The position numbers and the translations under genes are program-made. Below the pieces are notes generated by a model, which searched no databases, had not been told where the DNA came from, and saw nothing but the letters and a program-made list of their open reading frames with translations. DNA of 64,000 nucleotides from Actinomyces oricola (GTDB lineage: Bacteria > Actinomycetota > Actinomycetes > Actinomycetales > Actinomycetaceae): contig NZ_RYFV01000007.1 in the NCBI RefSeq assembly GCF_004104015.1, positions 1 to 64,000 on the forward strand, read 5' to 3'. Of the stretch, positions 8,743-32,089 are shown one piece after another; within the stretch, counting starts at the first letter, position 1; the number at the start of each line of letters is the position of its first letter.

Positions 8743-9615
8743 TCAACTCCGCCCGCGTTCAAGCAAATTCAGCAGGTACTGGCCGTAGCCGGACTTCACC
8801 AACGGCTCGGCGCGGGAGCGCAGGCCCTCGTCGTCGATGAAGCCCATGCGCCAGGCCACCTCCTCGGGGCAACCGATGTTGAGGCCCTGGCGGTGCTGGA
8901 CGGTGCGCACAAAACTGGTGGCATCAGCCAGGGAGTCGAAGGTGCCGGTGTCCAGCCAGGCGGTGCCGCGGGGCAGGACCTCCACGGTGAGGCGGCCGGC
9001 CTCCAGGTAGGTGCGGTTGATGTCGGTGATCTCGTACTCACCGCGGGCCGAGGGCTTGAGATTCTTAGCGATCTCCACGACATCGTTGTCGTAGAAGTAC
9101 AGACCGGGAACGGCGTAGTCGCTCTTGGGGCGGGCGGGTTTCTCCTCAATGGAGACCGCCTTGAGGTCGGAGTCGAACTCCACCACGCCGTAGGAGCTGG
9201 GGTCGGCCACCTGATAGGCGTAGACCACCCCGCCCTCCGGGGTGGTGTGGCGGCGCAGCCGGGTTCCCATACCGGGGCCGTAGAAAATATTGTCGCCCAG
9301 GACCAGGGCGGCGCTCTGGTCGCCAATGAACTCGGCCCCCAAGACGAAGGCCTGGGCCAGGCCGTTGGGGACCTCCTGAACCGTGTAGGACAGGCTGACG
9401 CCCAGCTGGGAGCCGTCGCCGAGCAGCCGGTGAAAACTAGCGGCGTCGTGCGGCGTGGTAATGACCAGAACATCCTGGATGCCGGCGAGCATGAGCGTGC
9501 TCAACGGGTAATAAATCATCGGCTTGTCGTACACCGGCACGAGTTGCTTAGAAGTGCCTAAGGTGATCGGGTTCAGACGCGTGCCGGAGCCTCCGGCCAG
9601 GATGATTCCTCGCAT
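8743..9615 (-). CDS. rfbA: Glucose-1-phosphate thymidylyltransferase
   Basis: Makes dTDP-glucose from glucose 1-phosphate and dTTP, the first step to dTDP-rhamnose and related wall sugars. The protein begins [20 protein letters not shown], the nucleotide-binding signature. Other family blocks are [36 protein letters not shown]-like [15 protein letters not shown] and DTGTFDSL. At 290 residues it is the normal length for RmlA. ATG 9615 is chosen because it places the family start at residue 1; six upstream codons are possible. It is divergent from manA with about 118 bp between the starts. The other dTDP-rhamnose genes are not in the window. Confidence 0.93.
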
Positions 9616-26314: not shown

Positions 26315-27676
26315 TCACACGCCGGCGGCCTGGCGCAGCTCGACGTCCAGACCCTCGTTGCGCATCCGCAGATCCACATAGATTAAGGCGGTCACCGAAG
26401 CGTTGAAGGGCAGCACCAGGGCGCTGAGGACGGCTGTGATAAAGGTTATGAGCGCCATAAAAAAGGCGTACATCTCCGGGGCGATCACGGCGAAGCCGGA
26501 TCCGACAACACCCGTTGCGCCAGAGATCGCTCCAGAGATTATTGAGGTAATCAGGCCGGCGAGGAACAGGGTTCCCAACACCTTCCAGAAATTACCGCGG
26601 GTCAAGGCCCAAGAGCGCTTTATGCCCTCAATGACGCCAATGTTCTCCAGGACCAGGGCGGCGGGGGCCACAGACAGTCGGACCGCAATGAAGGCAATGG
26701 CCACGCCGGTGGCAATAACGAGGAACAGGAGCAGCATGAGGAACAGAATAAAGAGCCCCGGGCTCACATCCTCACCGCTATCCGATACGGCCGTGGATAT
26801 GATGACGTATCCCATGGCCATGCTGGCGGCGCTGACGATCGCGATGATGGCACCGTTGATCAGGCTCAGGAGCAAGGTTTGGCCGATGAGGGCCAGGACC
26901 CGGTCCTTGGTGCGCTCCCATGCCTCCCCCGGGGTGGGCAAGCGGCCCAGCACGGCCCGCGAGACTGCGACAATGAGCAGCCCGGTCAAGATGGTGCTCG
27001 CCAGGGCGACGAGCAGGGTCCGCAGCAGGTCGCTGCCCGAGGCGGCCAGGACCGCGAAGACCGCATCCATCTCGGAGTAGGAGGAGTCGACGGTGCCGGC
27101 GCTCAGGCTGGCCAGCGGAGCGACTGACAGGTAGGTGAGCACTGCCGAGAGCAGGCCAATGACACTCATGACCACCAGCGAGGGCAGGAACATGGCCCGG
27201 GGGTTAACCCGCAGGGCCTCGAAAGCGCCGCCGAGGATCTCAAAAACGCTCAAAGGCCGCAGGGGGACAATGCCCGGCTTGGGGGTCAGAAGGAGGCCCG
27301 GCGGGATAGCGCCAGGGGCGTAGGGGTTCTGCCCTGCGGGGGCAGGGCCTGCGGGGCCGCCGGCAGTTGGGTAGGAGTACGGGCCTGCGGGGCCGGGGGC
27401 CGGATAGGGGTTCTGCCCGGGAGCGCCGGGGCCGGGGCCGCCGGCAGTCGGGTAGGGGTACGGTCCTGCGGGGCCGCCGGCCGGGTAGGGGTACTGGTCG
27501 GGAGCGCCGGGGCCGGCAGCCAGGTAGGGATACGGTCCTGCGGGGCCGCCGGGACCGGGGGCGGAGTAGGGATTCTGCTCTCCCGGCACCCCGCCAGGAG
27601 GCGCGCCAGGAGGGCTGTACCCGGGGGCAGAGGAAGAGCCGGACGGAGGCAGCCAGCTCGTGTTGTCGCTGCTCAT
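26315..27676 (-). CDS. Multi-pass membrane protein with Pro/Gly/Tyr-rich N-terminus
   Basis: About 453 residues. The first 150 are a low-complexity Pro/Gly/Tyr repeat (variants of GPAGPYPYPTAGGPG) on the cytoplasmic side. About six membrane helices follow, with IEGIKRSWALTRGNFWKVLG as the conserved loop, a pattern shared with the membrane domain of glycerophosphodiester phosphodiesterase-like proteins (DUF7847 type). The N-terminal repeat could be a site for condensation or for binding a WW/SH3-like partner; that is a guess. It is the first gene of the DUF4129-MoxR operon. ATG 27676 is chosen over GTG 27682. Its start is 125 bp from divergent mtrA. Confidence 0.8.
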   Translation of the reverse strand: MSSDNTSWLPPSGSSSAPGYSPPGAPPGGVPGEQNPYSAPGPGGPAGPYPYLAAGPGAPDQYPYPAGGPAGPYPYPTAGGPGPGAPGQNPYPAPGPAGPYSYPTAGGPAGPAPAGQNPYAPGAIPPGLLLTPKPGIVPLRPLSVFEILGGAFEALRVNPRAMFLPSLVVMSVIGLLSAVLTYLSVAPLASLSAGTVDSSYSEMDAVFAVLAASGSDLLRTLLVALASTILTGLLIVAVSRAVLGRLPTPGEAWERTKDRVLALIGQTLLLSLINGAIIAIVSAASMAMGYVIISTAVSDSGEDVSPGLFILFLMLLLFLVIATGVAIAFIAVRLSVAPAALVLENIGVIEGIKRSWALTRGNFWKVLGTLFLAGLITSIISGAISGATGVVGSGFAVIAPEMYAFFMALITFITAVLSALVLPFNASVTALIYVDLRMRNEGLDVELRQAAGV

Positions 27677-27801
27677 GGGCACATGCTGGCACGCGCCGAG
27701 ATGCGGATCATCCGCCCCGAGGAGGAGAACGTTCTCAGGGGGTGTCCCGTCCTACGGCGAGGAGGAAGCGCGAAGACGGTGGGCGTGCCAAGATACGGTC
27801 C

Positions 27802-28485
27802 ATGAGTACGCGCATCCTCGTCGTCGACGACGACACGGCCCTCGCGGAGATGATCGGGATCATGCTGGAGGCTGAGGGCTATCTCACGTCCTTCTGCCCG
27901 GACGGTGCCGCAGCCATGGAGGCCTTCCGCACGGAGAATCCTGACCTGGTGCTCTTGGACCTCATGCTCCCGGGGTTGGACGGCGTCGAGATCTGCCGTC
28001 TCATTCGCGCCGAGTCCGACGTTCCAGTGATTATGCTCACTGCGCGCACTGACACCCAGGACGTGGTGGCGGGGTTGGAGGCCGGGGCTGACGACTACGT
28101 GACCAAGCCCTTTAAATCCAAGGAGCTGCTGGCCCGGGTGCGCACTCGACTGCGGCGCAACCCCGATGGCGGGATCAATGAGCACGTGCGCGCCGGCGAC
28201 CTGGATATTGACGTCGCCGGCCACCAGATCTACCGCGGGCAGCAGCTGATTGCGCTCACACCCCTGGAGTTCGAGCTCCTGGTGACCCTGGCGCGCCAGC
28301 CCTGGAGGGTTTTCAGTCGCGAGGAGCTTCTGGAGAAGGTGTGGGGCTATCAGCACGCCGCCGACACGCGCCTGGTCAATGTCCACGTTCAGCGCTTGCG
28401 CTCCAAGATCGAGATCGATCCTGAGCACCCGGCCATTGTGGTGACTGTCCGCGGAGTGGGCTACCGGGTGTCTAACGACAGATGA
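27802..28485 (+). CDS. mtrA: MtrA, OmpR/PhoB-family response regulator
   Basis: A 227-residue regulator, the usual MtrA length. Receiver domain: ILVVDDDTALAEMIGIMLEA with the acidic pocket, the phosphorylated aspartate in LVLLDLMLPGLDGVEICRLI, and K in DDYVTKPFKSKELLARVR. The winged-helix DNA-binding domain runs from about 130 to 225 (ALTPLEFELLVTLARQPWRVF, ending TVRGVGYRVS). MtrA is an essential actinobacterial regulator that couples DNA replication, division and wall metabolism. ATG 27802 is the only start that leaves the receiver domain intact without extra sequence. It is followed by mtrB after 55 bp. Confidence 0.95.
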   Translation: MSTRILVVDDDTALAEMIGIMLEAEGYLTSFCPDGAAAMEAFRTENPDLVLLDLMLPGLDGVEICRLIRAESDVPVIMLTARTDTQDVVAGLEAGADDYVTKPFKSKELLARVRTRLRRNPDGGINEHVRAGDLDIDVAGHQIYRGQQLIALTPLEFELLVTLARQPWRVFSREELLEKVWGYQHAADTRLVNVHVQRLRSKIEIDPEHPAIVVTVRGVGYRVSNDR

Positions 28486-28540: not shown

Positions 28541-30392
28541 ATGAGCAGTCGTCACTCTGGTCGGCACACCTCAGAAGACAACGGCTCCCCCTCCCCGGCC
28601 CCTGCCGTCGGCCGCAGCCTGTCGACGCGCATGGCGACTCTGGCGACCCTCAACGGAGCGGTGATTATCGTCGTCCTCCTGATCCTGGTCACCGCCCAGA
28701 TCCGCGACGAGGTCTTCGCCGGCCGCCGGGACGTCATTCTGGCTGACGCCGGCCAGCGGGTGCTGGCCGCCCAAGCGGAGTTCGACTCGGCCACCGCCAC
28801 CACCCCCGATGAGGTGGCCGCCGTCGCTCGCGGGCAGGTGCGCCAGATCAAGGAATCCGCCTCGGGCGCGGGGGCGGTGGGCGTGGTGATGGAACGGTCC
28901 AGCACCGAAACCTCTGCCGCAGTGGTCAATGACCTGTCCACGGACCCCAACCTGTCCGCCCTCATCACCCCCGAACTGGTCGCACAGGTCGAAGCCGAGC
29001 AGAAGGGCGGCCTGAAATGGCAGTCCGTGGCCCTGATCGGGGCCGACGGCGAATCCGACCCCGGCATTGTGGTGGGTTCCCCGGTGACCTTGCCCATGGC
29101 CGGCCGCTACGACCTCTATTTGGTCTACTCCCTGGCCCCGGAGCAGAGGGTCATTGATGGCGCCGCGCGAGCCGTGGCCCTGGCCGGTATTGGCTTCGTC
29201 CTCATACTCATCCTGGGGGTGTGGGCGCTGACCTGGCGCGTCCTCATCCCGGTTAAGCGCACCTCCCTGGCCGCCGAGCGCCTGGCCGCCGGCATGCTCT
29301 CAGAGCGCCTCGACGAGCACGGGAACGATGAGTTGGCGGCCCTGGCCCGCTCCTTCAATAAGATGGCCGCCTCCCTGGAGAGCCAGATCGAGCGCTATGT
29401 GCTCTTGTCCAAAGTGCAGAGGCTCTTCGTCTCGGACGTCTCCCATGAGCTGCGCACCCCCCTGACCACCATCCAGGCCGCCGCCGAACAGATCTACGAC
29501 TGCCGCGACGAAATCCCCGACCCACTGGTGCGCCGCTCCTCCGAGCTCCTTTACGACCAGGTCGACCGACTTCAGGCCATGCTCACCGACCTACTGGAGA
29601 TCTCCCGCATTGACTCCGGTCATGTCGAGCTGCGCCCCCGCCACACCGACATGCGCGAGGTCGTGACCTCGGTATTGGAGATTAACGCCTTCCACGTCAC
29701 CGGCTCAGGGGCGCAGATCCGATTGCACCTGCCCGACGAGCCCGTCGTCGCCCAGATCGATGTGCGCCGGGTAGAGAGAATTATTCGCAACCTGGTCATT
29801 AACGCCCTGGAGCACGCCGAGTCCAAACCCATTGACATCACTGTGGCGGGCAATGAGCAGGCCGTGGCGGTGCGGGTACGGGACCATGGAGTGGGCATGA
29901 GCCCGGACGTGGTCTCCAAGGTCTTCGATCGCTTCTTCAGAGCAGATGCCTCCCGAAAACGGACCCTGGGCGGCACCGGGCTCGGCCTGTCGATCTCCCT
30001 GGAGGACGCTCACCTGCACGGGGGCACCTTGACCGCATGGGGGTGGCCCTCGGAAGGCGCCTCATTCCTGCTGACCCTGCCGCGTGAGCTGGGCCCCGAG
30101 GGCACCGCGGGCCACCTGAATGGCCCAGGGCCCCTCGAGCTCGTACCCGAGGACGCCCCAAGCGTGGCGCGCACCCCCCCCGCGCTCCACCGCCCGGACC
30201 GAGGGCGCCTCCAGGGCGGTACTCGGTCCAGCCCCGGTCTCGCGGCGCTCGCGGGTGCGGGACCACGACTCTTCCTCGCCCGCCACTGCCCCGGAGGAGA
30301 CCGCCACCCCCGGACACATCACCGTCCTGGGTCCGGGTCAGGCCCCCTCGGCAATGACCCCGGACAGCACCACCGGCCGGTGGCGACGATGA
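28541..30392 (+). CDS. mtrB: MtrB sensor histidine kinase, frameshifted near its 3' end
   Basis: Membrane kinase partner of MtrA. One N-terminal membrane helix (about 33-55), an extracytoplasmic sensor domain, a second helix near 210-230, HAMP, phospho-accepting His in FVSDVSHELRTPLTTIQAAA (near residue 303) and a full HATPase (NALEHAESKPIDITVAGN, GTGLGLSISLEDAHLHGG) are intact. After ELVPEDAPSVARTPP the frame meets a C8 tract (30174-30181). In the current sequence it runs on without a stop, in frame, into lpqB (28541-32089, 1,182 residues). With seven Cs the reading shifts to a high-GC3 frame ending at TGA 30390-30392, overlapping the lpqB start by four bases as expected. The extra C is therefore probably an error, a mutation or a phase switch. 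Confidence 0.85.
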
Positions 30393-32089
30393 GCTCCCCA
30401 GCGTCTGGGACGCCCCGCCCCCGGGGCGCCGAGTGGTCCCGCCGCCACCTTCTGGGGCTGCTCGCCGCCGGGGTCGGGACCCTGGGCGCCTGCTCGGCGC
30501 TGCCCACCTCGGGCGAGGTGTTCACCGGGGGAGTGATCTCGGATGACGACGCTCAGCTGGTCCAGACTGCCGAGGGCCCTATCCGGGGCGCCGGCCCCGA
30601 GGTAATCGTTCAAGGCTTCCTGCGCGCCTGTGCCGCCGGGTTCTCCGACGGCTTCGCCACTGCGCGCTCCTTCCTCTTCCCCACCCTCTCGGAAACCTGG
30701 AACCCCACTGAGGCAGTGCGCGTCTACGCCGGCTCGACCGCCCCCACGGTGAAGCAGGGCCCCAACGGGGCGGTGAACGTGGCCGCCGAACTCCTGGGAG
30801 TCCTGGACTCCACCCGGGTCTTCACCGCCCAGCCGGACCCGAACTACTCCGAGAGCTTGTCCCTGGCCACCACCTCGCAGGGCCAGTGGCGCATTGTCGC
30901 CCTGCCCATGGGGGTGCTCTTGTCCTCGTCGAGTCTGGCGGCCAGCTTCGCGGACTGCTCCCTGTTCTTCTTGTCCTCGGACTGCACCCGCCTGGTCCCT
31001 GAGCTGCGCTGGTTCCCCCGCCGCAGACTCTTGGTGTCCCTGGTCGAGGCGCTTCTCAAAGGGCCCTCGCCCTGGCTGGCAGCCGGGGTGATCTCCGCAG
31101 TGCCGGAGGGGACCGCCCTAGTGGGCGATGGGGTGAAGGTCGACGGTTCGACCGCGACGGTTCTCCTATCCGCCCAGGCGGCTTCGGCGAGCCCCCGAGT
31201 CCAGGCCCTGTTGGTGGACCAGATTAAGGGGACGCTACTGCAAGTCGGTGGCGTCGCCGAGGTGGTGGTCACCGCCGACTCCGCGCCCATGGAGTCCTCT
31301 GCTGGGCTTATTGCCTCAACAGCTCCTTCCGCAGGAAGCCTGGTGGGCATTGCCGGCGGTGAAGTGGTCCAGGGCGTGGAGGAGCCGCGCAGCGTCCTGG
31401 TCAACGCCGACGTCTTGGAGGGCCTGGAGCCGCGCCATCCTGCGCTGGGGCCGGACAGGACCGTTTATCTGGTCTCGGGTGAACGGCTCATGCGGATCTC
31501 CGCGGATGCCTCCGAGGTTGCCGAGGCCGCCGTCTTGGGGCCGGGGGCGGTTCTGCCCCCGGTGGTCGACAGACACGGTTGGGTCTGGACGGGGGCCGCC
31601 GGGGCCCTGAGCGTCCTGAACGCCCAGGGCGCGCGTGCAGAACTGGATGCCGCCTGGCTCTCCGGCGCCGAGGTGCTGGATCTTGATCTGTCTTGCGAGT
31701 CTGAGCGCCTGGCGGTGCGCTACACCAAGGAGGGCCGGACCCATGTGGGGGTTGCCGCCGTGCGGCGCAATGAGCGCGGCCAGCCCGTGGGACTGGGTGA
31801 GCCGCTGGCGCTGGACGTGGCCGCGGGTTGGGGCCTGACCTGGCAGGACCCGGTTGCCCTGGTGGCCCTGGAGGAGGGGACCGACGGCGTCTCCATGGTG
31901 CGCCGGACCCTGGTGGGGGGAACCTCCTCAATAACGGCGGGGGTTGCCGGCGCCGGGAGGGTGGTTGCCGACCGGGTCGGGGGCGACATCCTCCTGTCTG
32001 ACGGCGCCGGGCAGGTGTGGCAGCGCGCCGGCGCGACCTGGCGATCCCTGGGCGCTGACGTCTCCGACCTGGCCTACTCCCTGTCCTAG
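30389..32089 (+). CDS. lpqB: LpqB, lipoprotein of the MtrAB system
   Basis: A 566-residue lipoprotein. The signal WSRRHLLGLLAAGVGTLGAC has two arginines before a hydrophobic stretch (Tat-like) and the lipobox LGAC, so C36 is the likely lipidated residue. A GerMN-like domain (FAAGLRW-type WFPRRRLLVSLVEALLKGPS) is followed by a beta-propeller-like C-terminal half. LpqB binds and modulates MtrB at the outer face of the membrane in other actinobacteria. ATG 30389 overlaps the mtrB stop in the high-GC3 frame, which supports separate translation. In the sequence as given it is also in frame with mtrB. Confidence 0.9.
   Translation: MSSPASGTPRPRGAEWSRRHLLGLLAAGVGTLGACSALPTSGEVFTGGVISDDDAQLVQTAEGPIRGAGPEVIVQGFLRACAAGFSDGFATARSFLFPTLSETWNPTEAVRVYAGSTAPTVKQGPNGAVNVAAELLGVLDSTRVFTAQPDPNYSESLSLATTSQGQWRIVALPMGVLLSSSSLAASFADCSLFFLSSDCTRLVPELRWFPRRRLLVSLVEALLKGPSPWLAAGVISAVPEGTALVGDGVKVDGSTATVLLSAQAASASPRVQALLVDQIKGTLLQVGGVAEVVVTADSAPMESSAGLIASTAPSAGSLVGIAGGEVVQGVEEPRSVLVNADVLEGLEPRHPALGPDRTVYLVSGERLMRISADASEVAEAAVLGPGAVLPPVVDRHGWVWTGAAGALSVLNAQGARAELDAAWLSGAEVLDLDLSCESERLAVRYTKEGRTHVGVAAVRRNERGQPVGLGEPLALDVAAGWGLTWQDPVALVALEEGTDGVSMVRRTLVGGTSSITAGVAGAGRVVADRVGGDILLSDGAGQVWQRAGATWRSLGADVSDLAYSLS

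What the first reader, a model, noticed from the sequence alone, without database searches (positions are those of the whole stretch)
28541..32089. A C8 tract joins MtrB and LpqB into one long reading frame
At 30174-30181 a run of eight Cs lies near the end of mtrB. The frame before it continues without a stop into lpqB, giving 1,182 residues, although lpqB should have its own lipobox start at 30389. One base over, the region 30182-30392 has high GC3 and ends with TGA overlapping the lpqB ATG, the normal operon layout. Seven Cs give a normal MtrB; eight give a fusion. This could be a sequencing error, a real mutation, or a slippage switch that links a sensor to its lipoprotein modulator.
Basis: partly seen in the sequence, partly recalled or inferred. 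Interest (0 to 1): 0.75.

Follow-up and report, generated by a model that had tools for sequence, protein, structure and literature searches.

The report
Slippage-prone C tract breaks mtrB tail
A run of eight Cs in an Actinomyces-type genome shifts the reading frame of a sensor gene so that it runs by accident into the next gene; this looks like ordinary homopolymer slippage, or a read error, rather than a purposeful gene fusion.

Summary
C8 lies at 30174-30181, and the frame from 28541 runs open into lpqB (1182 aa). The displaced frame 30180-30392 is the true MtrB tail: a profile of 44 congeners' tails hits it with 40.3 bits, while the fused frame scores below the best shuffles. None of 45 congener loci has the fusion: mtrB has its own stop in each, and lpqB lies beyond it in another frame in the 42 where lpqB was found. 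The open path into lpqB is unremarkable for this GC-rich genus: lpqB's frame is open at least that far upstream in 13 of 37 congeners.
The tract is not alone. Three more genes of this genome move by +1 at a C7 or C8 run (an Ig-like giant, an EccC-type ATPase, a hydrolase-type gene). Single-contig congener genomes show frame breaks at G8 runs. MutS gave no match in 49 genomes. Most likely this is a one-base length change in a slippage-prone tract, with the fusion as by-product. An assembly error cannot be excluded without reads. A purposeful MtrB-LpqB switch has a published precedent in kind (PMC2823697) but no support here.

The parts
27814..28485 (+). mtrA, response regulator (start inferred from where the family match begins)
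   Evidence: NCBIfam NF040689 MtrA 368 bits, cut-off 300, matching from residue 150 of the ORF 27367-28485
28541..30181 (+). mtrB up to and including the C tract: two hydrophobic segments, HAMP, HisKA, HATPase_c
   Evidence: NF040691 MtrB 545.6 bits, cut-off 450, residues 25-519; Pfam HAMP 230-280, HisKA 293-360, HATPase_c 407-516; hydrophobic peaks 32-50 and 212-230
30174..30181 (+). C8 tract at which the coding frame moves by +1
30180..30392 (+). displaced frame: conserved MtrB C-terminal tail, ending in TGA that overlaps the lpqB ATG
   Evidence: 40.3 bits (E 5.8e-12) against a profile of 44 congener tails, best of 200 shuffles 8.0 bits; GC3 0.84
30182..30388 (+). same bases in the fused frame: 69 residues that resemble no MtrB tail
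   Evidence: not among the hits printed, so below 4.9 bits and below the best shuffles; linker length
30389..32089 (+). lpqB, lipoprotein with twin-arginine-like signal (read by eye) and lipobox Cys at residue 651 of the fused ORF
   Evidence: NF010139 LpqB 214 bits (below cut-off 802), NF010141 LpqB 108.5 bits (below cut-off 602); Pfam Germane 48.4 bits, cut-off 23; hydrophobic peak 637-655

Best explanation
This is an ordinary mtrA-mtrB-lpqB operon in which one slippage-prone cytosine tract in the mtrB tail has a length that puts the rest of mtrB out of frame. Polymerase slippage in a long C run, in a genus without MutS, is the likely cause (inferred). Consequences (inferred): the kinase core is still made, the conserved 70-residue end of MtrB is lost, and ribosomes miss the stop that overlaps the lpqB start and read on into lpqB. 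The product would be MtrB core + 69 off-frame residues + LpqB with its signal peptide as an internal third hydrophobic segment. Shown: the frame break at the tract, its absence in congeners, similar breaks at other long tracts, no MutS match. Not shown: that the extra length is in the living strain rather than only in the assembly, and that tract length varies in the population.
For: The displaced frame is the conserved tail. mtrB has its own stop in 45 of 45 congener loci (one, L092, has a masked stretch in its tail); lpqB lies beyond it in another frame in the 42 where lpqB was found, and the longest C run there is 4-6. Three further genes of this genome move by +1 at sense C7/C8 runs: G000:C8:29545 (Ig-like repeats on both sides), G000:C27:4069 (EccC-type) and G000:C77:32908; single ORFs of relatives span the last two. 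Breaks concentrate in long runs: 4 of 48 coding runs of 7 or more (mtrB added by hand because its right flank missed my score cut-off in each setting) against 3 of 690 runs of 5-6, Fisher p = 5e-4. In eight single-contig congeners five G8 runs sit at apparent frame breaks, one of them splitting a CMD domain (profile 1-40 / 37-83). MutS (TIGR01070) matched in 0 of 49 genomes and in 11 of 14 control genomes. In print: NucS, the actinobacterial substitute, does not correct indels (PMC8228993, passages), and a 7-bp poly-G tract in glpK is phase-variable in M. tuberculosis (PMC11898584, passages). Poly-G/poly-C junk at contig ends suggests two-colour short reads, for which C8 length errors in a consensus are uncommon (both points recalled).
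Against: No reads and no second isolate could be examined. The same assembly contains clear C/G-run artefacts, so its long C runs are not above doubt. All four breaks go in the same direction and lie on sense C rather than sense G (4 of 20 against 0 of 28, p = 0.025, post hoc); slippage does not predict this. Congeners do not show it: their breaks are on sense G, with +1 and +2, and their two testable sense-C8 sites are in frame. Two long tracts of this genome are in frame as well (C8 in L120, C9 in L121).
Confidence: 0.57

Rival explanations
1. Assembly or sequencing error: the tract length is wrong in this draft, and mtrB and lpqB are normal.
For: Draft of 78 contigs with C/G-run junk at contig ends and inside C56. 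Breaks rise steeply with run length, as homopolymer errors do. A normally conserved sensor and an EccC-type gene are both broken in the same direction. None of 45 congener loci shares the break.
Against: Runs of 5-6 are almost free of breaks (3 of 690), which flow-based sequencing would not lead one to expect (recalled). Breaks at G8 also appear in single-contig congener genomes. Sequencing error should ignore the coding strand, yet all four breaks lie on sense C (p = 0.025, post hoc).
Confidence: 0.3
2. Contingency switch: tract length alternates in the population so that MtrB and LpqB are made apart or as one chain, tuning a three-component system.
For: Tract position suits C-terminal switching of the kind proposed for Helicobacter canadensis, where a tract change could merge two CDSs (PMC2823697, section 6). 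Topology permits it: the LpqB signal would be a third hydrophobic segment with LpqB outside (peak 637-655; inferred; a fourth peak of like height lies at 785-803 inside LpqB). LpqB is reported to bind the extracellular domain of MtrB in M. tuberculosis (PMC3353115, passage).
Against: No C or G run of 7 or more in the mtrB tails of the 37 congeners counted. The fused frame resembles no congener tail. Its openness is met in 13 of 37 congeners. Tracts in the precedent are G10 or longer.
Confidence: 0.07
3. Ribosomes or RNA polymerase correct the frame: +1 slippage on CCC-C yields some MtrB with its normal tail, so the break is tolerated.
For: All four breaks are +1 and lie on sense C runs that contain a CCC-C step; CCC is a +1 shift codon in some contexts (PMC5009743, passages); sense G runs of 7 show no break (0 of 28).
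Against: The three tRNA-Pro genes seen look normal, 77 nt each (30 of the 49 tRNA matches had loci, so further ones may exist). In-frame long tracts occur as well (L120, L121). The CCC sites in the passages seen are CCC_UGA and one ACA_CCC, not C runs. Numbers are small and post hoc. trmD was not examined.
Confidence: 0.06

Closest known systems
Homopolymer phase variation in actinobacteria (M. tuberculosis glpK and the tract upstream of espR, PMC11898584; frameshift scars, PMC8339072)
   Same: Short G/C tract (7 bp in glpK), frame-shifting length change, a genus with no MutS match
   Different: Length variation and reversibility are documented there; here only one assembly was seen, and the tract is near the 3' end of the gene
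C-terminal phase variation in Helicobacter canadensis (PMC2823697, HCAN_0660/0661)
   Same: Tract near the 3' end; a frame change would replace the C-terminus and could merge the protein with the next CDS
   Different: Tracts there are G10 or longer with length variation in reads; the pair there is two hypothetical proteins, here a sensor and its lipoprotein
MtrAB-LpqB system of actinobacteria
   Same: Gene order mtrA-mtrB-lpqB, family matches, stop/start overlap
   Different: MtrB tail out of frame at C8

Membership tests
MtrB sensor kinase | curated MtrB model over its cut-off; HAMP, HisKA, HATPase_c | tested here: met
   NF040691 545.6 bits against 450; Pfam domains
MtrB sensor kinase | own stop codon at or beside the lpqB start, as in congeners | tested here: not met
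   in frame from 28541 there is no stop before the one ending at 32089; congeners have a stop in 45 of 45, 38 of 44 with an ATG/GTG overlapping or abutting it
LpqB lipoprotein | lipobox signal and LpqB/Germane match | tested here: met
   Germane over cut-off; NF010139 and NF010141 match but below their cut-offs; lipobox Cys read by eye
MtrAB-LpqB operon | mtrA directly upstream | tested here: met
   NF040689 368 bits against 300
Homopolymer contingency (phase-variable) locus | long tract at which the frame changes | tested here: met
Homopolymer contingency (phase-variable) locus | tract length varies between cells or isolates | not testable with these tools
   no reads and no second isolate of the species were at hand
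Homopolymer contingency (phase-variable) locus | tract kept in relatives | tested here: not met
   longest C run 4-6 in 42 congener loci and 3-6 in 11 loci and other families; no C7/G7 in the tails of 37 congeners
Programmed +1 frameshift gene | shift site conserved in homologues | tested here: not met
   from the kinase domain to its stop mtrB is one frame in 45 of 45 congener loci (one with a masked stretch)

The most novel reading that the evidence does not exclude
A tract-length switch in the mtrB tail decides whether this bacterium makes the MtrB sensor and its lipoprotein LpqB as two proteins or as one membrane-threaded chain, as one of a set of C/G-tract contingency genes (EccC-type ATPase, Ig-like giant and others) that Actinomyces uses in place of longer repeats.
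Probability: 0.07. Interest if true: 0.8.

Novelty: new member of a known kind. Interest (0 to 1): 0.33.

Why it matters
As a fusion gene it could be reported as a new sensor architecture; it should not be. As a slippage site it adds to a pattern: in this genus, with no MutS match in 49 genomes, long C/G runs in genes often sit at frame breaks, so part of its pseudogenes and fusions may be reversible states or read errors. A search for Actinomyces with phase variation and homopolymeric found one paper, not on this subject by its title and abstract; a wider search listed 8 of 51 papers, and none of these 8 contains the word Actinomyces.

Tried and rejected
Conserved MtrB-LpqB fusion: rejected, none in 45 congener loci nor in 11 other loci (L002-L009, L061-L063).

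General frameshift-prone assembly: ORFs of 150 aa or more from 80 kb of each of three relatives, laid on the window, gave nine signals (near 9600, 9660, 23160, 23220, 28440, 30180, 32040, 43500 and 49320). Only 30180 (mtrB) was taken as a break. The other eight coincide with ends of neighbouring ORFs or involve opposite-strand frames; I judged them shadows without further test, and I did not measure how much of the window the relatives cover.

Unusual tRNA-Pro as frame suppressor: the three tRNA-Pro genes seen are 77 nt each, no extra loop base by eye; not every tRNA match had a locus.

tRNA-Leu with C8 (L015) as a yardstick for tract errors: not usable, since the tract is T stem plus acceptor stem.

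Sense-C bias: present in this genome (p = 0.025, post hoc), absent in congeners.

Promoter or terminator in 29900-30700: none found by consensus scan. DNA alignment carried one relative (G033) in the wrong orientation and was used only by eye for the other two. Plasmid collection: no match. No structure was predicted.

Full report
What is there. The window is part of a 2.93-Mb, 78-contig draft genome. The nearest named record found is Actinomyces haliotis, at 62% amino-acid identity in the best segment; its contig has the same length as one in a same-genus genome, so the genus is taken to be Actinomyces (inferred). The ORF 28541-32089 is open for 1182 residues and holds C8 at 30174-30181. Its first part is MtrB (NF040691, 545.6 bits, cut-off 450, residues 25-519) and its last part LpqB (Germane over cut-off; LpqB models match below their cut-offs). 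mtrA lies directly upstream (NF040689).

Which frame is the real one. From base 30180 the frame displaced by one base reads 70 residues and ends in TGA overlapping the lpqB ATG. A profile built from 44 of 45 congener MtrB tails (one is masked) scores it at 40.3 bits, E 5.8e-12; the best of 200 shuffles of the same peptide scores 8.0, and the fused frame is not among the hits printed, the lowest of which has 4.9 bits. MtrB ORFs of three relatives match up to 30181 in one frame and from 30201 or 30219 in the next. GC3 agrees (0.84 against 0.75). So the conserved MtrB tail is encoded here, but out of frame with the kinase.

How other genomes do it. Of 49 same-genus genomes (the window's own included), 46 gave a DNA match at the limit used. 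In the 45 others mtrB has its own stop. In the 42 where my lpqB query matched, lpqB lies beyond that stop in a different frame; in three (L111, L113, L117) the query did not find lpqB. In 38 of 44 an ATG or GTG overlaps or abuts the stop. The longest C run in the region is 4-6 in the 42. Eleven further loci (Georgenia, Cellulomonas, Actinotalea and others, one of them the A. haliotis genome again) are not fused either. In 37 loci with the exact overlap, lpqB's own frame is open at least 72 codons upstream in 13, and over the whole tail in 12. The open path from the tract into lpqB is therefore a common by-product, presumably of high GC.

Is the tract special in this genome. Exact C7 runs number 84; places with 8 or more are few, and some of them are junk at contig ends or in a low-complexity stretch. 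I scored coding frame on both sides of runs in the fetched stretches, using a codon model trained on 30 window ORFs. With the 150-nt setting, 3 of 47 testable runs of 7 or more changed frame with the left frame still open more than 60 nt beyond (L017, L183, L206), against 3 of 690 runs of 5-6 (those three were not examined further). mtrB itself fell below the score cut-off on its right flank and was added by hand, giving 4 of 48 (p = 5e-4). The runs of 5-6 come only from the stretches I fetched, not from the whole genome. Homologues confirm two of the breaks: single ORFs of relatives (L241-L243; L245-L248) span the C7 of an EccC-type ATPase and of a hydrolase-type gene (its Pfam matches are weak). 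The third lies in an Ig-like repeat giant with Big_9 domains on both sides. All four move by +1 and lie on sense C. Two other long tracts are in frame (L120, L121).

Is it peculiar to this assembly. In eight single-contig congeners I fetched 79 of 80 exact C8/G8 places. Only 7 or 6 of them, by setting, are testable coding sites (two sense C8, the rest sense G8). In each setting 4 sense-G8 sites show a frame change, five distinct sites in all; the two sense-C8 sites do not. Read by eye the five look like breaks inside one protein. Pfam supports this for a CMD protein split inside its domain (1-40 / 37-83) and for TPR repeats on both sides; one right-hand piece is an N6_N4_Mtase DNA methylase with no match on the left, one site has no Pfam match, and one was not searched. 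So long C/G runs in genes of this genus often sit at frame breaks, in single-contig genomes too. MutS (TIGR01070) matched in 0 of 49 genomes. The literature seen says that NucS does not correct indels (PMC8228993, passages) and that a 7-bp poly-G tract in glpK is phase-variable in M. tuberculosis (PMC11898584, passages); indels there cluster in low-complexity sequence (PMC8339072, abstract and one section). Frameshift frequency rises with run length in M. smegmatis reporters (PMC10159617, passages).

Most likely mechanism. Slippage during replication changed the length of a C tract in the mtrB tail (inferred). The kinase core should still be made, the conserved tail is lost, and ribosomes pass the overlapping stop and read lpqB as part of the same chain, with the LpqB signal as an internal hydrophobic segment (637-655; a further peak of like height lies at 785-803). 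Whether signal peptidase II would cut there is unknown. That the sequence is right at all is not proven: the assembly contains C/G artefacts, and no reads were available.

What it is not shown to be. A switch that makes two proteins apart or as one has a proposed precedent in Helicobacter canadensis, whose authors call it perhaps unprecedented (PMC2823697, section 6). Here the tract is absent in congeners, the fused frame resembles no congener tail, and length variation could not be tested. Corrective +1 slippage on CCC-C is possible (PMC5009743, passages) but rests on a post hoc strand bias.

Noticed in passing
L183 (G000:C27:4069-4077, minus strand): EccC-type type VII secretion ATPase with a +1 frame break at a C7 run; ESX-linked homopolymers are phase-variable in M. 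tuberculosis (PMC11898584, passages), so this is a parallel worth checking.
   Followed up: partly
L208 5546-5553 (G000:C8:29545-29552): Giant Ig-like/cadherin-like repeat protein with a +1 frame break at a C8 run; Big_9 repeats on both sides.
   Followed up: partly
L206 (G000:C77:32908-32916, minus strand): Hydrolase-type gene with a +1 frame break at a C7 run; single ORFs of four relatives span it.
   Followed up: partly
L262, L273, L305, L318, L322: In single-contig congener genomes G8 runs sit at apparent frame breaks in a CMD protein, a DNA methylase, an unknown protein, a YD-repeat protein (by eye) and a TPR protein: candidate contingency genes of the genus.
   Followed up: partly
G000:C22 end (L331 19915-20000), C23 end (L119), C56 about 820-945 (L330): Long poly-G/poly-C stretches that look like short-read artefacts built into contigs.
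   Followed up: partly
L015 1495-1579, minus strand: tRNA-Leu(CAG) has C8 across the T stem and acceptor stem and an apparent A-C mismatch in the acceptor stem (read by eye).
   Followed up: no
window 30180-30392 and congener tails: MtrB of this genus has a tail of about 94-149 residues with recurring motifs (GPAPxxRR, a VTV..PGQ stretch, TPE/TPD; by eye), against 38-71 residues in the ten non-Actinomyces loci compared; function unknown.
   Followed up: no
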